Of a stretch of DNA of 41,408 bases, positions 20,132-37,788 are shown piece by piece (position 1 is the stretch's first letter; each line of letters starts with the position of its first letter). This DNA is from a virus: IMG/VR virus record IMGVR_UViG_3300027725_000002, positions 1 through 41,408 of that record. The stretch is one strand, 5' to 3'. The notes beneath the pieces were generated by a model that had not been told where the DNA came from, made no database searches, and saw only the letters and a list, made by a program, of their open reading frames with translations. The position numbers and the translations under genes were made by a program.

Positions 20132-20287
20132 TTAGTCCTCCCTTTCCGTAGCCGCCAGCACAAATGCCGCGAGAAGAAATACTCCGACCAAGAGGAGGCT
20201 GGTGTGCCAAAGGGCGTCGGCTGTGGGCATCAATCTCCTCAATATCCTCCCCGCCCTCCACTCGAACATCATATCCGGTGGGAACAT
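20132..20287 (-). CDS. Small membrane protein, 51 aa
   Basis: The ATG at 20287 forms TAATG with the terminase stop; an ATG at 20305 would add six residues. The C-terminal half is one membrane segment (LWHTSLLLVGVFLLAAFVLA) ending in TERED. It forms a pair with the next small membrane gene, six bases downstream. Function unknown. Confidence 0.55.
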   Translation of the reverse strand: MFPPDMMFEWRAGRILRRLMPTADALWHTSLLLVGVFLLAAFVLAATERED

Positions 20288-22149
20288 TAGGCTGGGTGAT
20301 CCCATCTGCGCCGGTTCCTCATCGAACCTCGCGCGAATCTTCCCCACGGTAGCGGCCGGTTCTTCTCCTGATCCAGCAGCGTCTTCTGAACCACCTGGTG
20401 CCGTACCATTGGATCGCTCAACACCTCGGCATTGACCACGCCGGCGGCCGCGATGCGCTCCGCGATCTGGATATCCAGCGGCTTCTGATTCTCGCGGGAC
20501 CGGTCACCCATTACGAGATAGCGGGCGCTCTGCAAAGGGTCGTCACCAACGAACTTTCTTATGTCATGTTTGCCATCGTCATCATGAGTCGCAATTGCCA
20601 GAAGCTCTTTCAGCTTTTGGCAGCAATCCCATATCTGGATCTTTGGCAGGACTTCCCGCGGTTTCTTGTGACGAGCCAAGTATTGCTGGTAAGCGTCCCG
20701 GCCTTCACTGAGAAACAGTTCGCGGGCGAAGTCCATGTCTGGCTGCACCTCCGGCTCGATCGGTGTGAAGCGCATCAACCCATGAAGATACTGCCAGCCG
20801 TCCGCGCGCCGGTTATTGGCGCGATAGATGATGATCCGCATGCGGCCATCGAGCGCGTTGTACCGCTGCTCCATTGACTGCCAGGCCTTTTCCGGTGAAC
20901 CAAGACGTTGCTCATCGTCCGTCAGATCTACCAGGAACGCGGAGCCAGCTCCCAGCACAATCTCGATACCGCGGCGAATCTGCTCGGCAAAAGTATACTT
21001 CGCGTCAGTTTTAGAGAAACACGACGGGTCGAGATGCAGCGGTATCGTGTGATCCGGCAGCCCTTCCAGGTCGCTCATGGACATCTTGGCGATCTCAGAC
21101 CCCAAGACCTCCGAACCCATGCCCTTGATGACAAACTCCCGGTAGATGTGCAGCCTTCCATCGGCCTTGTTCTGGCAACCCCAATGCACCGACGAGAAGT
21201 GATCGTATCCCCAGTCGACACCCATCGTCCGCGGCCACCAGGGAAGCAGATCGGCGCCAAGAATGACGTGCCGCGCCTCGGGTGGTTCGCCCGCGAGCGG
21301 GCCGTGCGGTCGATACCACTTGAAGTACGGACCCAGCATCGAGTCCCAGTCACCCTCAAGCCAAGCCCTTCGCGTCGCTTCCGGCTGATCCTTCAGCTGA
21401 TTGAGATAGTCCTCATTGTGCATCAGATAAGGATTGTCTTTTAGAAACGCCGGGATAAATATTCTGGTGCGCTTCGTCGCTGCGTCCAGCATCGTTGTCA
21501 TCGACGGAATCAGGTTCCCGTCCTTGTCCAATACTTTGACGTAGCGTGCGTTAACCCAGGCCGACCCCGGACCGTCAGGATTAGTCGTGGCGAAGAATTG
21601 GGCCTTAATCTCTGGCATCGTGGAGCGGCAGCATCCGAGAAGTCTCTTGAACAGGTCGAGGTCTGGAACCTGCGTCAATTCTTCTACCAGAACCTGTTGA
21701 TATTGTTGCGACTTGTACAACTCGTAGGACTTTGAATCCTTGAGGTGCCCGCCGCGGATGATATGGCCGTCCGGCCAGCGGATCTGAAGCGGACGTTCGG
21801 CAAACTTGGCGCCAGTCGGCTCGTAGAGCACTCGAGCGCGCGAGATCCACTCGGCCAGATCCTTTTCATTAGCCCGGATCACTAGACCGCGTAGGTCACG
21901 CAGGATACGCGGTTCCTGCGGTTCGATCTCGATCATCCCTGTTTCGGGATTGAATCGTTGAATCGTCCGATGTTTTACCAGCCAGGCGATGCCGCAGTCT
22001 GACTTCGCCCCACCGCGAGCACCACCGTAAAGAACCTCATTCTCCGTGCGTGCCAGAGCTATCGCCTGCTTCGGCAGAGGTTTCCAGATAATGTTAGGTT
22101 GGATTTGGATGCGCCCCGTATCGCAGCCCTTTGCCCTTGGGCGCCTCAC
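20287..22149 (-). CDS. terL: Terminase large subunit, 620 aa
   Basis: ATPase-nuclease that drives DNA into the capsid through the portal. Visible motifs are a Walker A-like GGARGGAKSD (about residues 42-51), a Walker B QVLVEE (152-157), the coupling motif ATTNPDG (187-193) and the RNase-H-fold nuclease start MGVDWGYDHFSS (309-320) with its first Asp. A DDDGKHD stretch near residue 545 may supply further acidic residues. The GTG at 22149 has AGGAG five bases upstream and overlaps the previous gene by 56 nt. Length is normal for the family. Confidence 0.92.
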   Translation of the reverse strand: MRRPRAKGCDTGRIQIQPNIIWKPLPKQAIALARTENEVLYGGARGGAKSDCGIAWLVKHRTIQRFNPETGMIEIEPQEPRILRDLRGLVIRANEKDLAEWISRARVLYEPTGAKFAERPLQIRWPDGHIIRGGHLKDSKSYELYKSQQYQQVLVEELTQVPDLDLFKRLLGCCRSTMPEIKAQFFATTNPDGPGSAWVNARYVKVLDKDGNLIPSMTTMLDAATKRTRIFIPAFLKDNPYLMHNEDYLNQLKDQPEATRRAWLEGDWDSMLGPYFKWYRPHGPLAGEPPEARHVILGADLLPWWPRTMGVDWGYDHFSSVHWGCQNKADGRLHIYREFVIKGMGSEVLGSEIAKMSMSDLEGLPDHTIPLHLDPSCFSKTDAKYTFAEQIRRGIEIVLGAGSAFLVDLTDDEQRLGSPEKAWQSMEQRYNALDGRMRIIIYRANNRRADGWQYLHGLMRFTPIEPEVQPDMDFARELFLSEGRDAYQQYLARHKKPREVLPKIQIWDCCQKLKELLAIATHDDDGKHDIRKFVGDDPLQSARYLVMGDRSRENQKPLDIQIAERIAAAGVVNAEVLSDPMVRHQVVQKTLLDQEKNRPLPWGRFARGSMRNRRRWDHPA

Positions 22150-22854: not shown

Positions 22855-23522
22855 GCCGACTTAGGGTCAATCACCCGCACCGCGTTCTCGATAGTCAACG
22901 GCGCGTGACCGTTAACCTGGTCCGCCGCGTGCCCGTTCGCCTGGCTGACCTGCGGAGCGATCAGCACCAGCACTTGCGCCGCGGTCGGCCCGTCGCCTTC
23001 ATCGTCTTTCTTGACCGTCAACGCCCCAACCGCGCCGGCGATCTCCATTGCCATTTTAGCTGACCTGGTCGCCGACTCGAGCGCCTGCCAACTCACCGGC
23101 TTGATGATCGTGATCCGCGTTTTGCCGTCTTCGTCTTCCTTGACCTCCTGCTGAGTCAACGGCCACTTGGCCAGCGTCATCCATTTTTGCAGGATCAGGC
23201 CAGCACCGAGCGCGGAATTTTCCCGGTTCTCGATCAGGCGAAGCGCCCAAACATCACCGGCTTGCTCTACTCGGGCAAGCTGCTTGCCGAGGCTTGCCGC
23301 TTGAAGCCTTTCGTCAAAAGCCTTTGCTCGCTCGATCCACTGGAAGTCCTTTACCCACTTAGAGAATTTGCCAGAGCATTGGCTTGCCCGCGGCTTGCCA
23401 GACCACTTGCGGTAGGCCTCACGAAAGGTACGATTCTGCATTTCGCGGTAAAGCACAAAAGCTCGCCACGCTGGCTCATTCTCATCGGGCAGACGATCCC
23501 AGGCATGCTTCTCAGAGGTCAC
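22851..23522 (-). CDS. terS: Terminase small subunit, 223 aa
   Basis: Assigned from position two genes before the large subunit and from a helix-turn-helix-like N-terminal half with Trp-rich spacing (YRKWSGKPRASQCSGKFSKW, then DFQWIERAKAFDERLQ), the usual form of small terminases that recognise packaging-site DNA. The middle is helical (oligomerisation), the end is Ala/Asn-rich. Starts with GTG at 23522, overlapping the ParB-like stop as GTGA. Confidence is moderate because small subunits diverge strongly. Confidence 0.75.
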   Translation of the reverse strand: MTSEKHAWDRLPDENEPAWRAFVLYREMQNRTFREAYRKWSGKPRASQCSGKFSKWVKDFQWIERAKAFDERLQAASLGKQLARVEQAGDVWALRLIENRENSALGAGLILQKWMTLAKWPLTQQEVKEDEDGKTRITIIKPVSWQALESATRSAKMAMEIAGAVGALTVKKDDEGDGPTAAQVLVLIAPQVSQANGHAADQVNGHAPLTIENAVRVIDPKSA

Positions 23523-24040
23523 GGCTTGAACCTATGCCCGCAACTGGGGCACTTCACGCTCTTGTCTTTTCCCGCTGCCTCTGGCTGCTCGTCAACCAGT
23601 TTGCGCCCCATGTCGTCCATGATCTCCTGCAGCGCCTCTTCGTCAAACCCTGTTCCTTTCAGGTCACCTTGATCTGATCTAATGGATTCAAGCAGTTCCG
23701 CAAGTTCCTGCGGGTTGTCGACGCCGAGCCGCGCCGTCCGGTTGTCTGCCAGCATGAAACACAGGGCGGTAGCATCATCCAAGTCGGCCCAGATCACCGG
23801 GAATTGAATCAACCCCCGTTCCTTGGCCGCCAGCCAGCGATGCTTGCCAGCCACAATGTAGCCGGTCGAGCGCTGCACCACCGCGGCCCCGATGAATCCG
23901 TTAACCTCAATGCTTTCAATGATACAACCGACATCGCCTTCATTCGTATTTTTGGGATGCGGCTGCACTGAGTCAATATCGACCAACTCGTAGGTCTGTT
24001 CCGCCACAGTTACCGTTGCGGTTTCTCTTTTTCTCCCCAT
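23519..24040 (-). CDS. ParB-like N-terminal domain protein with zinc-binding tail, 173 aa
   Basis: Residues about 18-105 form a ParB/Srx-type domain: YELVDIDSVQPHPKN, then SIEVNGF, then the motif GYIVAGKHRWLAAKERG and a LADNRTA motif. Members bind DNA or CTP or act as nucleases and are common beside phage terminases and modification genes. The last 12 residues contain CPSCGHRFK. No partition partner (ParA) is visible, so a packaging or DNA-processing role is more likely. No Shine-Dalgarno is seen before the ATG; a TATACT box lies 20 bases upstream in a symmetric divergent promoter region. Confidence 0.82.
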   Translation of the reverse strand: MGRKRETATVTVAEQTYELVDIDSVQPHPKNTNEGDVGCIIESIEVNGFIGAAVVQRSTGYIVAGKHRWLAAKERGLIQFPVIWADLDDATALCFMLADNRTARLGVDNPQELAELLESIRSDQGDLKGTGFDEEALQEIMDDMGRKLVDEQPEAAGKDKSVKCPSCGHRFKP

Positions 24041-24620: not shown

Positions 24621-24720
24621 GGTGCTCGGGAAAAGCATGACTTGGGGTTGCCCGTATCGCGTCGAAGCAATTGAGCAACCCCCGGACCGGCAAGCTCTGC
24701 CGAGAGCTATCCTGTGCCAC
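24565..24720 (-). CDS. Possible small ORF, 51 aa
   Basis: GTG at 24720 overlaps the stop of the preceding gene by 14 bases, which is the only support. The product (VAQDSSRQSLPVRG, then an Ala/His/Glu-rich end) shows no family features and overlaps the next ORF by 56 nt. It may be a chance frame. Confidence 0.22.
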   Translation of the reverse strand: MAQDSSRQSLPVRGLLNCFDAIRATPSHAFPEHHEAAEAASPQAARKSVPR

Positions 24721-26495: not shown

Positions 26496-26885
26496 ATGCC
26501 TTCCGCCCTCCAATCCGGTGTCGCGCGCGCCGCACGCCCGGCAGCCCCGGTTTCCCCCGATGGCGTACCCCGAAGGCCACCAGCGCGTGCGACACAGGCT
26601 GATGGTAACGGAGGCGTCTTTTTCAGCAAGCATCCGACACGGCGAAGAATGGGCAAACCGACTGAAAACAGGAAACATAGGATCGGCATTAGGGTCCAGG
26701 AACAAGACCGCGAGCGCATCCTTCAGCTGAACATCTGCCAGGACACCAAATGGTCTGGCAGGTATCAGCCCCTGACGGTCGAAACGCGCGCCCTGGTCAT
26801 GGCAGATCGCATCGAGCACCACGCCACGGCTGCCCGCTGGTCCGGTAGTGCAGGGATACAGAAAAACCTGGAACTGGTTGGGTAA
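26496..26885 (+). CDS. Chimeric ORF carrying repeat copy 1, 129 aa
   Basis: The central part of this frame (26577-26727) is identical at DNA level to 28494-28644 and read in the same frame. Upstream residues are Ala/Pro/Arg-rich and the downstream part (WSGRYQPLTVETRALVMADR) differs from copy 2. An internal ATG at 26649 could start a 78-residue version ([17 protein letters not shown]). No ribosome site precedes 26496. It looks like a gene rearranged by the duplication. Confidence 0.4.
   Translation: MPSALQSGVARAARPAAPVSPDGVPRRPPARATQADGNGGVFFSKHPTRRRMGKPTENRKHRIGIRVQEQDRERILQLNICQDTKWSGRYQPLTVETRALVMADRIEHHATAARWSGSAGIQKNLELVG
26577..26727 (+). repeat. 151-bp perfect direct repeat, copy 1
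   Basis: Identical base for base to 28494-28644 (offset 1917). It lies inside the chimeric ORF. With copy 2 it brackets the cassette that encodes the Mom-like and ASCH proteins. Confidence 0.95.
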
Positions 26886-26895
26886 AGGAGGACTT

Positions 26896-27090
26896 ATGGC
26901 TGAAACGATCAACTACGCTGCAGAGTGCTACAGGTTATCCGGTGCCGATCCTGACGGCAATGAAGACTGGCGCTTGGCACCGCTAGCAGTTGAGGAAGTA
27001 CGGAGACTACGCCAAGATTCAGATAAGTCTGCCGCTGAAGTTTTAAGACTCGAAGCCCAACTCGCCGAGCGAACGGCTAACCCCAAATGA
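26896..27090 (+). CDS. Hypothetical small protein, 64 aa
   Basis: AAAGGAGG four bases before the ATG is one of the best ribosome sites in the window and fixes the start. The product is helical and charged (EEVRRLRQDSDKSAAEVLRL). Its TGA overlaps the next ATG (ATGA). First gene of the repeat-flanked cassette. Confidence 0.65.
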   Translation: MAETINYAAECYRLSGADPDGNEDWRLAPLAVEEVRRLRQDSDKSAAEVLRLEAQLAERTANPK

Positions 27091-27326
27091 GCCAGCAATT
27101 GCGGTACTTTTGCGGAGAAAACGACCCTAAGTCCAACCTTGTCATAGGGGGTAATCTAGACAAAGGTTACACTCCTGTCTATCACTTACCGACACTTTCA
27201 CCAGAAACAAACCACTTAGCCTCGCCAAGTTTGCGGGCGAATGCGGTAAAAAACAGGATTTTGCGTGCTAGTTGCGGGAGCGGGAGTGTGCTTCTCGGCA
27301 AACACACGAGGAAGGCCAGCGAATGA
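27087..27326 (+). CDS. Small protein upstream of mom, 79 aa
   Basis: Coupled at both ends: its start overlaps the previous stop and its stop overlaps the mom start (ATGA both times). The sequence (FCGENDPKSNLVIGGNLDKG) has no recognised family. Phage Mu has the translational regulator Com in this place, but this protein lacks the Com zinc-finger cysteines, so homology is not claimed. Confidence 0.5.
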   Translation: MSQQLRYFCGENDPKSNLVIGGNLDKGYTPVYHLPTLSPETNHLASPSLRANAVKNRILRASCGSGSVLLGKHTRKASE

Positions 27327-27943
27327 TTCCCTACACGGTTATGGAGGTAGGGAGGTCGGCCGTTGACCATTTGATTAAAGCTCACTACTTGCACCGATGG
27401 CCGGGGGTTGTTACTGCGGTCTTGGCACTCATGGATAGGTCCATGCCGATCGGTGCAATTGTTTTTGCGCTGCCGCCCCGCGAGACGATGAAGCGCTACG
27501 GTGTGAGTCTGGCTTGGGAATTGGCCCGCCTGTTTATCCAGGACGGGACTCCCAAAAACACCGAATCCTGGTTTGTAGCCCGCGCGATTGAATGGGTCAG
27601 AAAGAATCGTCCCAATGTGGACCTGCTCGTTTCGTATGCAGACCCGGCCGCTGGCCATCGTGGCGTCATATACCGCGCAGGAAATTGGCTTCAGGACGGT
27701 CGCACCGATCAAGAGCGCAAAACGCCACGATTCGACTATCTCACCGAGGGCTCTGGCGAACACCTATTCGGAGTGGCGGACCCGATCAAGTATGGACGAA
27801 AGGCCCATGTCCCGGCTGGTGCAGCGGTAGAGAGAATCGCCCGCGTATCTAAATGGCGGTTCGTATATTGGCTCGACGGAAAACATGAGATGCGGCGTAA
27901 AGGCGCACGCCTAAAATCGCACAGAGCCGCGGAGGCCCAATGA
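27323..27943 (+). CDS. mom: Mom-like DNA adenine modification protein, 206 aa
   Basis: Resembles phage Mu Mom, a GNAT-fold protein that converts adenine in phage DNA to a carbamoylmethyl form and so blocks host restriction. Visible family features are AHYLHRWPG (about residues 20-28), ELARLFIQDGTPKNTESWFVA (66-86) and VSYADPAAGHRGVIYRAGNW (103-122), the last being the most typical. Length is close to Mom. The start is fixed by ATGA overlap. It lies in a cassette between 151-bp perfect repeats, beside an ASCH protein. The identity is by pattern recall and needs a profile search. Confidence 0.8.
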   Translation: MIPYTVMEVGRSAVDHLIKAHYLHRWPGVVTAVLALMDRSMPIGAIVFALPPRETMKRYGVSLAWELARLFIQDGTPKNTESWFVARAIEWVRKNRPNVDLLVSYADPAAGHRGVIYRAGNWLQDGRTDQERKTPRFDYLTEGSGEHLFGVADPIKYGRKAHVPAGAAVERIARVSKWRFVYWLDGKHEMRRKGARLKSHRAAEAQ

Positions 27944-27984
27944 CCCGCCCTTCCATCGAGTACCTGAAGCCGGAGAAAGCATGA
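27940..27984 (+). CDS. Bridging mini-ORF, 14 codons
   Basis: Its ATG overlaps the mom stop and its TGA overlaps the ASCH start, both as ATGA. It contains the ASCH ribosome site (GGAG). It probably acts as a reinitiation stepping stone; the peptide itself may have no function. Confidence 0.35.
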   Translation: MTRPSIEYLKPEKA

Positions 27985-28847
27985 AAGCGCTGACACTAAC
28001 GCAGCCTTGGGCGTCTCTCGTCGCGATTGGTGCAAAACGCATTGAGACGCGCTCGTGGTCCACGTCCTATCGCGGACCGCTGGCAATTCATGCGGCGAAG
28101 GGATTCCCGAAATCGGCGCAGGAGTTCACGCAGGTTCCGCCTGTTAGCGTACTTTTTGGCAGGCACTATGAGTATCCGCGCGGCGTAGTCCTGGCCACGT
28201 GTCGGCTTGTTAATTGTGTCCCGACCCAAACCCTGCTGCGCGAGGCTGCGTGCGAGCGCTGCGATGGCAAAGGCACCGTGGATAGTTGGCAGGATGGGAT
28301 GCCAGGACAAGAATACTGCCCAACGTGCGACGGAAACCGCGTCGTATTTGTGCCTGGTGGAAAACTATCGACCCAAGAACAGCAGTTTGGTGATTACGGG
28401 GAAGGCCGCTACGCCTGGATGCTTGACGACATTCAGCCAGTGCCATTTATCCCGGCAAAAGGCGCGCTCGGATTGTGGGAATGGACACAAGACCCACCAG
28501 CGCGTGCGACACAGGCTGATGGTAACGGAGGCGTCTTTTTCAGCAAGCATCCGACACGGCGAAGAATGGGCAAACCGACTGAAAACAGGAAACATAGGAT
28601 CGGCATTAGGGTCCAGGAACAAGACCGCGAGCGCATCCTTCAGCAGCTATTCCGCTGCCTCGGGAAATATGACCCTCGGGCCATCCCAAGGATCATCTCG
28701 AAGCGCACCGGGATCACTGAGCAGGCCGTTGATTACGTGTTCCAGCAGACCTGCCAGGAATTCAGAGAGTGGTCGCGTGAGATCCGACTTGGCCTAGCTA
28801 GAGCTGACGAAGCCGGATCGGCTGTGTGGGGAAGGAGAAGCGCATGA
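27981..28847 (+). CDS. ASCH-domain protein fused to helix-turn-helix-like C-terminus, 288 aa
   Basis: Residues 1-170 are an ASCH domain (start [20 protein letters not shown], then ETRSW[12 protein letters not shown] and ALGLWEW), an RNA/nucleotide-binding fold found near modification genes. A zinc module CERCDGKG-x14-CPTCDG is inserted at about 91-118. Residues 172-222 come from the 151-bp repeat, and the remaining 66 residues look helix-turn-helix ([20 protein letters not shown]). Stand-alone ASCH proteins usually end near the LWEW motif, so the fusion probably arose by the repeat. GGAG seven bases upstream sets the start. Confidence 0.75.
28494..28644 (+). repeat. 151-bp perfect direct repeat, copy 2
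   Basis: Right-hand copy, inside the ASCH gene from codon 172 to 222. Sequence matches copy 1 without a difference and breaks off sharply on both sides. Confidence 0.95.
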
Positions 28848-29422
28848 TCGAAATCCTAGACCGATTCACGCGCGCGGTTCTGTACTCAAGCGCAACCGCG
28901 AACGATATTGCCACAGCGGTGGCGGAAGCAGTTAAAAGCCGCGCGTACCTCAGCGGCGCGTACCTCAGCGGCGCGAACCTCAGCCGCGCGGACCTCAGCG
29001 GCGCGTACCTCAGCCGCGCGTACCTCAGCGGCGCGTACCTCAGCGGCGCGTACCTCAGCCGCGCGGACCTCAGCGGCGCGTACCTCAGCGGCGCGGACCT
29101 CAGCGGCGCGTACCTCAGCGGCGCGTACCTCAGCCGCGCGGACCTCAGCGGCGCGTACCTCAGCGGCGCGGACCTCAGCGGCGCACAACACGTCTTGCGG
29201 ATCTCTGGCGGTCGGCACGACATCGTTGTTTCAGACACCGGCATGGTCTCAATCGGTTGCCATGATTATCCAATCGAGCGATGGCTGGCATCGTATAAGG
29301 TCATCGGCCAAGCAGAGAACTACGGGCCAGAAGAGATCGAGGATTACGCGGATCGCCTGAAACTGGTCGCAAATTGGATTAGCCGCCAGAAGGCTCACAC
29401 AGATCAGGAGAAGACGGCATGA
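28844..29422 (+). CDS. Pentapeptide-repeat protein, 192 aa
   Basis: Residues 33-112 are 16 consecutive pentapeptides of the form (G/R)A(Y/D/N)LS, which fold as a right-handed quadrilateral beta helix. Proteins of this class can mimic DNA and bind gyrase, but most phage members are uncharacterised. The C-terminal domain ([36 protein letters not shown]) recurs after pentapeptide repeats in other proteins as I recall. ATG overlaps the ASCH stop and has GGAG seven bases upstream. Confidence 0.85.
28940..29179 (+). repeat. 15-bp tandem repeat array, 16 units
   Basis: Unit (C/G)GC-GCG-(T/G/A)AC-CTC-AGC. Leu, Ser and Ala always use the same codon; only the first base of two codons varies. Units 7-11 and 12-16 follow the same order, so a 75-bp block was duplicated. 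Confidence 0.95.
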
Positions 29423-31186: not shown

Positions 31187-31720
31187 GTGTCAATCATAGC
31201 GTCAGCGAAAAGTGGGAAAGAGTTTCAACCAGCCCCGGCTGGAACCCACGCCGCGGTGTGCTGCGACATTGTCGATCTCGGTACTCTGGAAGTCACGTTC
31301 GGAGGAAAGACCAAATCACAGCACAAAATCAGGGTGGTCTGGCAGATAGACGAGGAACGCGACGATGGCAAGCCATTTACTGTAGGAAAGCGTTACACAT
31401 TGTCACTCCATGAAAAATCAAATCTGCGCAAAGATCTCGAATCATGGAGAGGAAAATCATTTACCCCAGAGGAGCTCGACGGTTTCGACCTCGAAGTACT
31501 GATCGGCATTGGCTGCATGGTGAATATCATTCACCAGCCGAAACAGGACGGCGGCCAGCCGTGGGCCAACGTGGCAGCCGTAATGAAACTCCTAAAAGGC
31601 ATGAGCGCACCCATCATTCGAGAGTACGTGCGCGTTTGTGACCGTAAAGATGAGGACAACAATCAATCCATCTCTGAGAGCCGAGAATATGCAATCACCG
31701 ACGACGATGTCCCATTTTAA
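31187..31720 (+). CDS. Phage replication protein of NGO0469 family, 177 aa
   Basis: The sequence order fits the NGO0469-type family: SIIASAKSGKEFQPAPAGTH, then DLGTLEV-x-x-GGKTKSQHKI, then KRYTLSLHEKSNLRKDLESW, then RGKSFTPEEL and NVAAVMKL. Members are annotated as phage replication-initiation or single-strand-binding-like proteins; biochemical proof is scarce. Start is GTG at 31187. It precedes Gp157, a usual pair in such phages. Confidence 0.72.
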   Translation: MSIIASAKSGKEFQPAPAGTHAAVCCDIVDLGTLEVTFGGKTKSQHKIRVVWQIDEERDDGKPFTVGKRYTLSLHEKSNLRKDLESWRGKSFTPEELDGFDLEVLIGIGCMVNIIHQPKQDGGQPWANVAAVMKLLKGMSAPIIREYVRVCDRKDEDNNQSISESREYAITDDDVPF

Positions 31721-31730
31721 GGAGGAACCA

Positions 31731-32489
31731 ATGACTGCTACTACTCCACTAGCCCTCGCTAGAACTCACTCGCTCTGGAAACTCGATGCTGAGCTTCAGG
31801 ATCTCACCGAGCGCGCCCAGGAAGAAGAAGCGGGGCCGTGCCCAGGATGTGACGGTAAGCAGTTGATCCCTACACCTACCGGTCCAGTAACCTGTCCTGA
31901 ATGCGCCGGTAAGGGCACCGGCGTGATCTCAGCCGCAACGCAGGAAGCGCTGACCGCTTACTTCGAGGCCACCGTGCAGAAGGTGGACCGGGTTGCGGAG
32001 TTCCTGAAGTTCCTGAAGGCGCTCGAAGAAACCTGTAAGGCTGAAGCGGCGCGAATCTCCGAGCGGCGGCATGTGGCCGAGAATACGGCCGAGCGCATAA
32101 AGAACATGCTTAAAGAATTTATGGCCAAGCGCGGAGATACCCAGATCAAGAGCAAACTCAACACGATCAGCTTGTGCCGGAACAGCCAACCGTCCCTGGA
32201 GATTCAGGACGCGACGGTGATTTACGGCAAGGAGAGAATCGCATCGGCAAAGGTACCAGCTAAATTCCAACGCATCCAAATCACGGTAACGCGGGAGTGG
32301 TGGGACCAATTCGTAGAGTCCTGCAAGTTCGACGGTGCCTTGCTGATCCCACCGGCAGAGTTGGCCCGTAAATTCATGAATATATCGGCTCCGTTCATCG
32401 ACGAATCCGCGCTCCGTGATCATCTGGCGGCCGGAGAAACCATTGAAGGGGCCACGCTAGAAACCGGCCGACATATACGGGTGCGCTGA
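31731..32489 (+). CDS. Siphovirus Gp157-like protein with zinc insert, 252 aa
   Basis: Gp157-type helical protein: SLWKLDAELQDLTERAQEE, then a helix KVDRVAEFLKFLKALEETCK, ARISERRHVAENTAERIKNM and a KSKLNTISLCRN strand. Members are found in recombination/replication regions. A DnaJ-like zinc module (CPGCDGKQ, CPECAGKG) is inserted near residues 37-60, which is not typical. AAGGAGG five bases before the ATG fixes the start. Confidence 0.75.
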   Translation: MTATTPLALARTHSLWKLDAELQDLTERAQEEEAGPCPGCDGKQLIPTPTGPVTCPECAGKGTGVISAATQEALTAYFEATVQKVDRVAEFLKFLKALEETCKAEAARISERRHVAENTAERIKNMLKEFMAKRGDTQIKSKLNTISLCRNSQPSLEIQDATVIYGKERIASAKVPAKFQRIQITVTREWWDQFVESCKFDGALLIPPAELARKFMNISAPFIDESALRDHLAAGETIEGATLETGRHIRVR

Positions 32490-34107: not shown

Positions 34108-34328
34108 ACATGCCCGTAACCGAGATACGCCCGCGACTCATGACCTCCGATGAAGTGGCGGAGTTGCGGCTGCGTATTGGCCGAATGTTGGCGATGGTAG
34201 AAACCGGCATGGTCGAGGCCCAGGAAGTGTTTCTGCCGTACTGGGAGCAAGGCGGCAAGACGCTTTACCAGCATCTGCAGGAAAACAGATTCAAGGCACT
34301 CCCAGCACCATCTGGTGAAACCCAATGA
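34104..34328 (+). CDS. Hypothetical protein, 74 aa
   Basis: Starts by ATGA overlap. Helical (SDEVAELRLRIGRMLAMVE) and polar. Stop overlaps the RusA start. Function unknown. Confidence 0.55.
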   Translation: MNMPVTEIRPRLMTSDEVAELRLRIGRMLAMVETGMVEAQEVFLPYWEQGGKTLYQHLQENRFKALPAPSGETQ

Positions 34329-34783
34329 CTACCGTCTTCCCAACCTCGGTTCCGGCAACCTCAGCCTTTGTGTGCCCGACGTTCACACTCAACGGCCCGC
34401 CACGGACAAAAAAGAATCACGGCGTCACGAAAATTCTGCCTTCTCTTCCGTACCTGGAGTGGTACAAGCTGGCCATGCAGCAGGTGCCGATCATTCGGAC
34501 GATATTCAGGATGGCGAATATCCGGCTCCCGATCAGCGGCCCAGTGGCAGTTAAGGCGTTGTTCTACCGCGAGGCTCGCGTAGGTGATCTGAACGGTTAT
34601 ATGCAGGCCCTGGGGGACTTCCTGCAGGAGTCGCGCATGTTTGGTAACAAGCAACGCACGGGCGCCGGAATCATCAAGGAGGATAGTCAAATATGTTCCT
34701 GGGATGGCTCCCGAAGACTGCATGACAAGAACTTTCCGCGGATTGAGGTCACGATCTCGATACTGCCGGAGGGAATGGAATAA
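34325..34783 (+). CDS. rusA: RusA-like Holliday junction resolvase, 152 aa
   Basis: Fits the RusA family: N-terminal FTLNGPPRTKKNH, central GDLNGYMQALGDFLQ and KEDSQICSWDGSR, then RIEVTI. RusA dimers cut four-way DNA junctions at recombination or packaging. The usual D-x-D-N-x-x-K order is altered to GDLN-G-Y-M here, so activity should not be assumed. Starts by ATGA overlap; length matches the family. Confidence 0.8.
   Translation: MTTVFPTSVPATSAFVCPTFTLNGPPRTKKNHGVTKILPSLPYLEWYKLAMQQVPIIRTIFRMANIRLPISGPVAVKALFYREARVGDLNGYMQALGDFLQESRMFGNKQRTGAGIIKEDSQICSWDGSRRLHDKNFPRIEVTISILPEGME
34763..34783 (+). repeat. 21-bp gene-end/ribosome-site repeat, copy 1
   Basis: CTGCCGGAGGGAATGGAATAA, encoding the LPEGME end of RusA plus the stop and carrying GGAGGG for the next gene (start 34789). 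Copy 2 is at 35196-35216 with three base differences. Confidence 0.7.
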
Positions 34784-35617: not shown

Positions 35618-35994
35618 CCGCACAGCCCTGGATCGCGCGCCGCGAGGAGTATCTCAAGAAGAAGGGCGTGGAGCCGCCGTCCTATGCATTGGCCGTAGCG
35701 AAAGAGCAGATCCGCCAGCACGTTGAACGTAAACCAGCTAGGTCGGAGTCGCAACGCGCCGCGGTATCGCGCACCATGAAGAGCTACCACGCGACGACCG
35801 AGAAGCGCCTGCACCACGAGGCTCTGTACGGGCGCCGGAAGCAGCCTGACCTTGAATTGGAGCTCAGATCAAGAATGGAGTCCGATATCGCGGCACTTCA
35901 GGGTCAGATGCGTGCTGCGCTCGGGATACTGGCGGAGCGCCGGCGGGAACTGGATCAGTTATGGGATCTGGTCGAGTGGATAATGAACCGATGA
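35614..35994 (+). CDS. Coiled-coil protein, 126 aa
   Basis: Starts by ATGA overlap. Basic start, heptad-rich second half (LRSRMESDIAALQGQMRAAL, then ERRRELDQLWDLVEW). Stop overlaps the Dam-type gene start. Function unknown. Confidence 0.6.
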   Translation: MTAQPWIARREEYLKKKGVEPPSYALAVAKEQIRQHVERKPARSESQRAAVSRTMKSYHATTEKRLHHEALYGRRKQPDLELELRSRMESDIAALQGQMRAALGILAERRRELDQLWDLVEWIMNR

Positions 35995-36449
35995 ATTCTG
36001 TGCTCTTCAGTTCGGCTACGGATCGCTGGGCGACACCGCGCGATGTCTACGATGCGCTTGACGCTGAGTTCTGTTTTGACTTCGATCCCTGCCCGATTGA
36101 CGGCACAGAAGATGGCCTTGCAACGCTCTATACGCAATGGATGGGACGCCGGATATTCTGCAACCCTCCATATGGCCCGGGGCTGGCTAAGTGGCTAGAA
36201 CGCGGGCTGGAAGCGAACCTGGCGGTATTCCTGATTCCCGCCCGGACAGACACGCGCTGGTTTCATGACATCGTGTTGCCGAATGCAAAAGAGATCCGGT
36301 TTATAAGGGGACGGTTGAAATTCGGCAATGCCGTGAATGGCGCGCCGTTTCCGAGCATGATCGTGGTGTTCAAGCGCTTGGGCAGTGAAGAGAAGAAGCC
36401 CAGAAATGCCAGGGAACATGTGTGTGGCTCAAACTGTTTGGATTGGTAA
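35991..36449 (+). CDS. Phage DNA N-6-adenine methyltransferase (Dam type), 152 aa
   Basis: Predicted methylase of adenine in phage DNA. Family features: SSATDRWATPRDVYDALDAE at the start, FDFDPCP (about 29-35), the catalytic CNPPYGPGL (57-65) and ARTDTRWFHD. Length is typical of the small phage Dam-like group. The start is set by ATGA overlap. Together with the Mom-like protein it gives this phage two adenine-directed modification genes. Confidence 0.85.
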   Translation: MNSVLFSSATDRWATPRDVYDALDAEFCFDFDPCPIDGTEDGLATLYTQWMGRRIFCNPPYGPGLAKWLERGLEANLAVFLIPARTDTRWFHDIVLPNAKEIRFIRGRLKFGNAVNGAPFPSMIVVFKRLGSEEKKPRNAREHVCGSNCLDW

Positions 36450-36673: not shown

Positions 36674-36790
36674 ATGATGTCTGAAGCGCATGTTGTCGGC
36701 CTGATCCGCCGTTGCGCGGAAGATTGGGCAGTTCCACGGGGCGGCGCTCCTGTCGCCGCTCCAGCCCAAATCCCCACAGGAGGGGGATAA
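36674..36790 (+). CDS. Small ORF before the replication initiator, 38 aa
   Basis: ATGATG start, natural-looking product (SEAHVVGLIRRCAEDWAVPR) and a Pro/Ala/Gly tail; ends two bases before the initiator start and supplies its ribosome site (GGAGG). A longer reading frame here belongs to the initiator frame upstream and is not used. Confidence 0.45.
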   Translation: MMSEAHVVGLIRRCAEDWAVPRGGAPVAAPAQIPTGGG

Positions 36791-36792
36791 AA

Positions 36793-37788
36793 GTGGCGCG
36801 CACGCGCAATCTAAAACCTGGATTCTTCAAAAACAACAAACTGGCCAAATTAGGCCCCCTATCGCAACTTATTTTCGCTGGCCTGTGGACCATAGCTGAC
36901 CGAGAGGGGCGCCTGGAGGACGAGCCTGAACGTATAAAGGTCGAGGTTTTGCCTTATGACACAGGAAAGGTAAGCAGCATAGATGTCTGCCTGTCGAAAC
37001 TGCATGAGTCCGGATTCATTCTAAGGTACGAGGTTGATGGTAACAAATACATTTCAATTCCGAAATGGCATGAGCACCAAAAGCCTCACTACATGGAGCC
37101 ACCTTCAGAAATTCCTCCGCCGCCGGGCACCGAAAACAGATACAACTGTGAACCCATCAGGAAAGAACAGCGCCAACGGATATTTTCCAAAGATAACTTT
37201 CGATGTGTGCTCTGTGGGTCAGAAGATCGACTTACTATCGATCACGTAATCCCGATCACCAAAGGTGGATCTAGCCTTGATTCAAACCTTAGAACTCTAT
37301 GCCATCAATGCAACATGATGAAGGGATCAAGGATTGATGATGGCACGATCAAGCAGCTATCATCAAACTATGATGATGGCGTTCACGTTCCCCAAAGGGA
37401 CGATCCCCTTAACCCTTCAAGCCTTAACCCTTCAAGCCTTAACCCTTCTCCTAACCTCTCACCACATGCCAAGTCCGAAATGAACGGCTACGACCCGATG
37501 CCTGGATGGAACTGGTTCAGCAAAGAATATCCGGGGCACAGGCTGAACCCCAAAATGGACTCTCAACTATGGCTCTCAGTAGTAACCCCAGAGATTGAGG
37601 CTATTATCCGCGAGAAGCTACCGCACTTCAAGGCATCAGCAGAGTGGACGGAACGCAGCGGGCAGATGGTCCCATCAGCCAGCCGATTCTTGAGCGAGGG
37701 GCGCTACACGATGGAGCCAGGGGCGCCGCCGACTAGGGAGAAAAGTCAACGTCAGCAGTTAATCGAATCCGATACGGAGAACCTATGA
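36793..37788 (+). CDS. Replication initiator with winged-helix N-terminus and internal HNH domain, 331 aa
   Basis: Residues 1-100 match the N-terminal winged-helix part of phage replisome organisers (NLKPGFFKNNKLAKLGPLSQ, then ADREGRLEDEPERIKVEVLP, KYISIPKWHEHQKPH). Residues about 122-183 form a complete HNH domain: CVLCG (138-142), DHVIPITKGG (150-159), NLRTLCHQCN and the closing MKGSR. A low-complexity LNPSS repeat (206-219) and a C-terminal domain with WLSVVTPEIEAII follow. The HNH is read in frame, so this is a multi-domain protein and not an intron. GTG start at 36793 with GGAGG upstream. Confidence 0.75.
   Translation: MARTRNLKPGFFKNNKLAKLGPLSQLIFAGLWTIADREGRLEDEPERIKVEVLPYDTGKVSSIDVCLSKLHESGFILRYEVDGNKYISIPKWHEHQKPHYMEPPSEIPPPPGTENRYNCEPIRKEQRQRIFSKDNFRCVLCGSEDRLTIDHVIPITKGGSSLDSNLRTLCHQCNMMKGSRIDDGTIKQLSSNYDDGVHVPQRDDPLNPSSLNPSSLNPSPNLSPHAKSEMNGYDPMPGWNWFSKEYPGHRLNPKMDSQLWLSVVTPEIEAIIREKLPHFKASAEWTERSGQMVPSASRFLSEGRYTMEPGAPPTREKSQRQQLIESDTENL
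37408..37448 (+). repeat. 15-bp iteron-like repeat inside the initiator gene
   Basis: CTTAACCCTTCAAGC at 37408-37422 and 37423-37437, then CTTAACCCTTC at 37438-37448. It encodes LNPSS repeats and lies where lambdoid phages keep origin iterons (within the initiator gene). Origin function is inferred. Confidence 0.65.

What the first reader, a model, noticed from the sequence alone, without database searches (positions are those of the whole stretch)
26577..28644. Mom-ASCH cassette between perfect 151-bp direct repeats
26577-26727 and 28494-28644 are identical, read in the same frame, and bracket small genes, a Mom-like DNA modifier and an ASCH protein. Recombination between copies would delete the 1.9-kb cassette and join both outer ORFs into one. 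No transposase or integrase is present, so this looks like a recently gained or excisable antirestriction module. An assembly artefact is the main alternative.
Basis: partly seen in the sequence, partly recalled or inferred. Interest (0 to 1): 0.8.

Follow-up and report, generated by a model that had tools for sequence, protein, structure and literature searches.

The report
Scavenged phage gene fragment between repeats
An environmental phage seems to have picked up a 1.8-kb piece of another genome carrying a DNA-disguise gene (Mom), which landed in a small gene and left a 151-base duplicate on either side; it looks like a real, fairly ordinary scar of gene theft rather than a purpose-built mobile module.

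Summary
In detail: 26577-26727 and 28494-28644 are identical (151/151), in the same frame, and flank a genuine Mom and an ASCH gene. An assembly artefact is now less likely. A second IMG/VR contig of the same phage (3 differences in 26,699 bp) ends exactly 123 bp inside the repeat. A contig-graph simulation at k=123 predicts that end only if a second sequence also enters the repeat at its first base. k=123 is the top value in published JGI MEGAHIT settings; the setting for this dataset is not documented here.

The segment is not a tidy cassette. Its left end is the last ~50 codons of a ~250-residue phage gene, cut within three codons of the repeat; its right end is an ASCH gene whose stop is gone at the other border. 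The outer borders look undisturbed, on weaker evidence. Best reading: a foreign fragment entered gene X through two non-homologous junctions overlapping by 151 bp, leaving one intact X. No tyrosine or serine recombinase was found. Deletion between the copies is plausible, but no cassette-free allele was seen, and only one other contig reaches the site. A known kind of event; modest interest.

The parts
26518..26595 (+). 13-pair inverted repeat (26518-26530 with 26583-26595, one G-U pair) across the L|R1 border; its right arm lies in R, its left arm is absent at R2
   Evidence: 4 of 500 first-order Markov sequences of the local 300 bp hold a stem this long; 8 such stems in the whole window
26577..26727 (+). 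repeat copy R1: sequence before X plus the first 26 codons of X, broken off by the insertion
26727..26885 (+). 3' remnant of a phrog_887-like gene (annotated 'queuine tRNA-ribosyltransferase' in phages); first ~196 of ~251 codons missing
   Evidence: custom HMM E=7.7e-8; the Pfam and PHROG libraries themselves gave no match to the 52-aa tail
26896..27090 (+). small ORF 1, start preceded by AGGAGG
   Evidence: sequence; no Pfam match above its cut-off and no PHROG match (scanned from 26848)
27087..27326 (+). small ORF 2, ATGA overlaps with the genes before and after it
   Evidence: sequence; no family match
27323..27943 (+). mom: Mom-family DNA adenine modification enzyme, 206 aa
   Evidence: PF25680 4.8e-28, phrog_1384 3.5e-32, PDB 8bv8 1.3e-6
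27981..28493 (+). ASCH-domain gene, stop codon lost; frame runs on into R2
   Evidence: PF04266 3.9e-7; relatives
28494..28644 (+). repeat copy R2
28566..28847 (+). gene X, 93 aa, orphan, predicted three-helix HTH-like protein; complete, starts inside R2
   Evidence: no relative, and only G001's partial copy

Best explanation
A 1,766-bp fragment of foreign, probably phage, DNA (tail of a phrog_887-like gene, two small ORFs, mom, an ASCH gene lacking its stop) was inserted into the 5' part of the small gene X of this phage. The two junctions are non-homologous, and in the recipient the second lies 151 bp upstream of the first, so those 151 bp (sequence before X plus its first 26 codons) are now present twice. 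Shown: repeat identity, broken genes at both inner borders. Supported: undisturbed outer borders, and a second upstream context of R in another assembly. Inferred: a one-step exchange between phage genomes or a replication template switch; that X stays intact downstream so the insertion is tolerated; that mom, with its own translation signals inside the fragment, is expressed, modifies adenines and shields phage DNA from restriction. The repeats would allow homologous loss or amplification of the segment; this is possible, not shown.
For: R identical 151/151. Left inner border: phrog_887-like homology starts at ORF residue 79 (tblastn) or 81 (HMM), R ends with the first base of codon 78; profile 197-233 of 251, E=7.7e-8 against 1788 six-frame ORFs; 79 of the 80 fetched relatives are 249-254 aa. 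Right inner border: R2 begins at codon 172; homology of 25 ASCH relatives ends at residue 154-177 in 23, and the two that go on (L014, L019) run through stop codons. Outer borders: hairpin across L|R1; predicted helix 18-31 of X crosses R2|Right at residue 26/27. Reality: contig IMGVR_UViG_3300006804_000031 has 3 differences in 26,699 bp and ends 123 bp into R. Simulated ends at k=123: 26699 for L-R-cas-R-Right, no break for single-copy L-R-Right, 26727 for a branch only after R. Repeat-broken MEGAHIT/metaSPAdes contigs end with maxK bases (passages of PMC10914622); JGI MEGAHIT k-list tops at 123 (passages). No Tyr/Ser recombinase in window or G001.
Against: No donor with this gene order: no co-occurrence of Mom, ASCH and phrog_887 in 25 ASCH loci and 23 Mom loci; 1 ASCH neighbour and no Mom in 80 phrog_887 loci. 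Composition of the fragment is ordinary for this phage, so it does not show foreign origin. No cassette-free allele seen. In two of the three JGI papers the k-list belongs to metatranscriptome assemblies and in one of them metagenomes were assembled with SPAdes; the setting of 3300006804 is undocumented here. R is 151 bp, the length of JGI reads in PMC8125072. Pfam and PHROG libraries did not recognise the 52-aa phrog_887-like tail. Coding scores are weak: 26496-26648 lies between coding and non-coding values, and within R from the ATG a reverse frame scores higher than X (0.22 against 0.09). The hairpin is modest evidence. In-frame joins at both inner borders might hint at selected fusions.
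Confidence: 0.63

Rival explanations
1. The segment is native and R1 is the derived part: an ancestral operon L - phrog_887 gene - small ORFs - mom - ASCH-X (a true fusion) lost most of the phrog_887 gene, and the gap was filled by a copy of 151 bp taken from the ASCH-X gene 1.9 kb downstream.
For: ASCH is in frame with X; composition of the segment is ordinary for the phage; phrog_887, ASCH and Mom are all phage-type genes.
Against: None of the 24 ASCH relatives whose ORF was read has an R-like tail; homology ends at the R2 border in 23 of 25 and is spurious beyond it in the other two; the hairpin needs L next to R1.
Confidence: 0.13
2. Homologous integration of a circle (Campbell type), or a recurrent excise/reintegrate cycle: a circular molecule carrying R plus the segment recombined with the single R of the phage, and can leave again by the same route.
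For: A single crossover at 151-bp homology leaves exactly this arrangement; the second contig's end is equally compatible with a separate R-segment circle (model E).
Against: The segment ends are broken genes; no replication gene or recombinase recognised in it; the exact-pattern scan of viral contigs gave one record, G001, though a 1.9-kb circle would hardly be held there.
Confidence: 0.1
3. Assembly artefact: R exists once, and the segment of another phage was joined to both sides of it in error.
For: The window is a metagenome-type virus record; both inner joins are odd; R is 151 bp, a common JGI read length.
Against: Non-homologous joins need reads that contain them; another assembly of a slightly different consensus (3 differences) ends exactly 123 bp into R, which a single-copy R does not predict in simulation.
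Confidence: 0.09
4. An evolved excisable antirestriction cassette that uses R as a recombination site.
For: Perfect repeats; mom with its own translation signals; in-frame joins.
Against: Broken genes at both ends; no PF00589 or PF00239 in window or G001; Mom and ASCH not found together in relatives.
Confidence: 0.05

Closest known systems
Mom of phage Mu (PF25680; PDB 8bv8, 'Methylcarbamoylase mom')
   Same: The window protein matches the Pfam family over residues 28-208 of the longest ORF (E=4.8e-28) and the solved Mu protein (E=1.3e-6).
   Different: Mu mom overlaps com near the right end of its genome; here no com-like gene was recognised among the segment's ORFs and mom lies in a fragment between 151-bp repeats. 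Activity untested.
Morons / novel joints from illegitimate recombination between phages (recalled concept)
   Same: Extra genes inserted among phage genes through non-homologous junctions, recipient gene kept.
   Different: Here the insert carries broken genes at both ends and a perfect 151-bp flanking duplication; no promoter or terminator of its own was demonstrated.
Campbell-type single-crossover integration (recalled concept)
   Same: Leaves direct repeats of the homologous stretch around the inserted DNA.
   Different: Would need a small circle carrying exactly R plus the fragment; none was seen.
phrog_887 phage proteins annotated 'queuine tRNA-ribosyltransferase'
   Same: About 50 C-terminal residues survive at the segment's left end.
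   Different: The other four fifths are absent, so it is a remnant.

Membership tests
Mom family (PF25680) | profile match above the curated cut-off over most of the domain | tested here: met
   98.6 bits against 27.1, profile 10-192 of 202
Mom family (PF25680) | DNA adenine modification activity | not testable with these tools
   needs expression and mass spectrometry of DNA
ASCH domain (PF04266) | profile match above the curated cut-off | tested here: met
   31.2 bits against 21.2; 25 relatives at 35-52% identity, several of them near-identical to each other
phrog_887 protein | full-length ~250-aa protein | tested here: not met
   only profile positions 197-233 of 251 present; no other match in window or G001
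Site-specific or transposable mobile element | recombinase or transposase inside or near | tested here: not met
   no PF00589 or PF00239 in window or G001; no transposase match for the five ORFs scanned inside or across the segment; IS families not searched one by one
Site-specific or transposable mobile element | terminal inverted repeats at the segment ends | tested here: inconclusive
   no inverted repeat of 20 nt or more at the borders; shorter ones were not looked for
Excisable cassette | occurrence of the empty (one-R) allele | tested here: inconclusive
Moron (extra phage gene of foreign origin) | present in one phage, absent at the same locus in a relative | tested here: inconclusive
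   no relative phage with the locus was found

The most novel reading that the evidence does not exclude
The two perfect repeats make the Mom segment a reversible 'accordion': by homologous recombination during phage replication the population constantly loses and re-amplifies the DNA-modification genes, with the regulator-like protein X placed either alone behind L or joined in frame behind ASCH (ASCH-X), so that modification and its control switch together.
Probability: 0.1. Interest if true: 0.6.

Novelty: new member of a known kind. Interest (0 to 1): 0.3.

Why it matters
It is an unusually clear scar of how phages pick up DNA-modification genes: both joints can be placed almost to the base, both cut through genes, and the recipient gene appears to have been saved by the duplication. 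It suggests that such genes can arrive as random fragments rather than in ready-made modules. It also shows how the end of another contig (here exactly 123 bases inside a repeat) can help tell a real repeat from an assembly error without reads.

Tried and rejected
Led nowhere: DNA searches of the phage and plasmid collections for the locus (no match); X protein in phages, viral contigs and bacterial genomes (nothing but G001's partial copy); terminase scans (three contigs of the same phage plus one distant 25% match; none); Gp157-like scan (none confirmed); Rep scan (two distant partial matches); an unidentified 508-aa protein of the structural side in phages (no match). A faint X match in L007 (E=0.004, 0.012) lies in a long ORF that I judged spurious; this judgement was not tested. 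The Mom-family search in 25 ASCH-locus records plus G001 is uninformative because its control rang in none of 14 genomes; the tblastn check was used instead. Three literature searches for phage insertions with flanking repeats or duplication gave listings only, none about this locus by title or the start of the abstract.

Considered and rejected or ranked low: transposon (no enzyme found, 151 bp far longer than usual target duplications, recalled); terminal repeats of a phage genome (would imply a 1.9-kb genome); ASCH-X as an ancestral fusion (apparent extensions in L014 and L019 run through stops); foreign origin from composition (ordinary).

Corrections and selections: the score of small ORF 1 started one base late (26897 instead of 26896) and is not used. 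Of 25 ASCH relatives the ORF of L025 was not read; that of L030 is cut by the contig end; L022 does not begin with a start codon; L010, L012, L013 and L015 are the same protein and L008 and L011 nearly so. The 80 loci and many Mom/ASCH loci are short, so absent neighbours may lie outside.

Full report
WHAT WAS CLAIMED. A Mom-ASCH cassette bounded by two perfect 151-bp direct repeats, possibly excisable, possibly an assembly artefact.

The repeat R lies at 26577-26727 and 28494-28644, 151 of 151 identical, 1917 bp start to start, 1766 bp between. Besides a 15-nt pentapeptide array it is the only direct-repeat family of 30 bp or more reported in the window. Both copies start at a codon boundary of their ORFs. 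The window is a virus record of 41,408 bp, with packaging and lysis genes on the minus strand to the left (terminase large subunit 20287-22149, endolysin 1159-1686) and replication or recombination genes on the plus strand to the right (Gam-like/Gp157 31638-32489, RusA-like 34325-34783, Rep-HNH 36712-37788).

WHAT LIES BETWEEN THE REPEATS. (a) 26727-26885: about the last 50 residues of a family of ~250-aa phage proteins, phrog_887, annotated 'queuine tRNA-ribosyltransferase'. The lead was a tblastn search with 49 matching phage records at E<=1, of which three loci were read. An HMM built from 83 proteins (80 fetched loci plus those three) matched this ORF alone among 1788 six-frame ORFs, E=7.7e-8, profile positions 197-233 of 251, beginning at ORF residue 81; tblastn matches begin at residue 79; R ends with the first base of codon 78. 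Of the 80 fetched relatives 79 are 249-254 aa and one 169 aa (the 80 are the best of 589). The Pfam and PHROG libraries themselves gave no match to the 52-aa tail. The missing front is not elsewhere in the window or in G001. (b) Two small ORFs without a family match above cut-off; the second has ATGA overlaps with its neighbours. (c) mom at 27323-27943: PF25680 E=4.8e-28, Mu enzyme 8bv8 E=1.3e-6. (d) An ASCH gene from 27981. One search gave 26 loci; one is the same phage (L029), leaving 25 relatives. Their homology ends at query residue 154-177 in 23 of 25; R2 begins at residue 172. In the other two (L014, L019) the alignment reaches 218 and 222 only by running through stop codons. ORF lengths read for 24 of the 25 are 133-230 aa; L018 and L021 have longer tails without likeness to R. 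In the window the ASCH frame has no stop and runs into R2.

So both inner borders cut through genes: one has lost its front, the other its stop. That is how a random fragment looks, not an evolved cassette.

THE OUTER BORDERS. A 13-pair stem (26518-26530 with 26583-26595, one G-U) crosses L|R1. It occurs in 4 of 500 first-order Markov sequences of the local 300 bp; the whole window has 8 stems of that size; 7 of 200 shuffles of 26500-26610 fold as well. This is support, not proof. The ATG of X lies inside R (26649/28566), so X (28566-28847, 93 aa) is complete downstream. Coding scores favour X over its other frames over its full length (0.06 against -0.04 or less), but are weak: 26496-26648 scores -0.06, between true frames (0.10 +/- 0.09) and off frames (-0.33 +/- 0.27), and in the 26 codons inside R a reverse frame scores higher (0.22) than X (0.09). 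A single-sequence AlphaFold2 model of X (mean pLDDT 79; five models 54-79; residues 1-11 below 50) has three helices, one of which (18-31) spans the R2|Right border at residue 26/27. PDB matches are mostly homeodomains, none with E<=0.001. X has no relatives in the collections searched.

IS IT AN ARTEFACT? A second IMG/VR record, IMGVR_UViG_3300006804_000031 (G001, 47,544 bp), overlaps the window over 26,699 bp with 3 differences, extends 20,845 bp further left, and ends 123 bp inside R. [quoted passage not shown] A JGI-style MEGAHIT k-list topping at 123 appears in three papers (PMC8125072, PMC6243002, PMC6646334; passages); in the first two it served metatranscriptomes, and the first used SPAdes for metagenomes. 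That older JGI metagenomes were also built this way is recalled, not checked. I simulated contig ends for five arrangements at five k values. At k=123 the left contig ends at 26699 when a second sequence enters R at its first base (double copy; double copy plus deletion allele; single copy plus separate R-segment circle), does not end there for a single copy, and ends at 26727 for a branch only after R. The observed end is 26699. This does not separate the double copy from a circle; the window contig itself is the evidence for the order. Two more contigs of the same phage stop before R: 3300006806_000036 at 26520, inside the hairpin's left arm, and 3300006954_000025 at 24658. R is 151 bp, equal to the JGI read length given in PMC8125072, which keeps some doubt alive.

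MECHANISM. The most economical history is L-R-Right with X intact, plus a donor fragment joined at the end of R on one side and at the start of R on the other, so that R is present twice. Two illegitimate exchanges between co-infecting phage genomes, or a fork that switches template and returns upstream, would leave this. One intact X survives. Mom has its translation signals inside the fragment and could act at once; the Mom family is described as transferring an acyl group to N6 of adenine (PMC7824862, passages). The ASCH protein belongs to the PUA superfamily, some branches of which read modified bases (PMC7897488, passages); a similar role here is inference. The phage also has a Dam-type methyltransferase (PF05869, 35961-36449).

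EXCISION. 151 bp of identity would allow homologous deletion or amplification; the joint reads as an open frame. No empty allele was seen, but G001 alone of the other contigs reaches R. No tyrosine or serine recombinase was found in window or G001.

CO-OCCURRENCE. In 25 ASCH loci no Mom or phrog_887, in 23 Mom loci no ASCH or phrog_887 (tblastn E<=0.01; many loci are short). In 80 phrog_887 loci one ASCH neighbour (L077) and no Mom (E<=0.001). The grouping is not a recurrent module in these sets. The fragment's trinucleotide composition is ordinary (110 of 199 overlapping windows deviate as much or more).

LITERATURE. Searches (listings only; titles and starts of abstracts) showed no paper about this locus or this arrangement; most subscription papers are not held.

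VERDICT. A real feature, correctly located, best explained as a recent and probably accidental gain of a Mom-bearing fragment with a 151-bp flanking duplication. A known kind of event, a clear example, modest interest.

Noticed in passing
28826-29422: ORF directly after X with an array of near-identical 15-nt units (about 28937-29185) encoding pentapeptide repeats (PF00805 E=1.5e-36); very uniform, perhaps recently expanded.
   Followed up: no
35961-36449: Dam-type N6-adenine methyltransferase (PF05869, E=1.2e-16) in the same phage as Mom; Mu mom is Dam-controlled (recalled), so a link is worth testing.
   Followed up: no
36712-37788: ORF with a replication-initiation-like N-terminal part and an HNH endonuclease domain in one frame.
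   Followed up: no
23519-24040: ParB_N-like protein (PF02195, E=2.2e-8) on the minus strand next to the terminase genes.
   Followed up: no
26520: A sister contig (3300006806_000036) ends in the left arm of the GC-rich hairpin, 57 bp short of R; perhaps a coverage gap, cause not shown.
   Followed up: partly
L077 4570-4968: ASCH-like stretch directly upstream of a phrog_887 gene (from 5001) in another phage contig, the only such neighbour among 80 loci.
   Followed up: no
L032 1-20000 (G001, left of the window): The overlapping contig adds 20.8 kb with very long minus-strand ORFs (1178, 1120 and 808 aa), so the window is only part of a phage genome of at least about 62 kb.
   Followed up: partly
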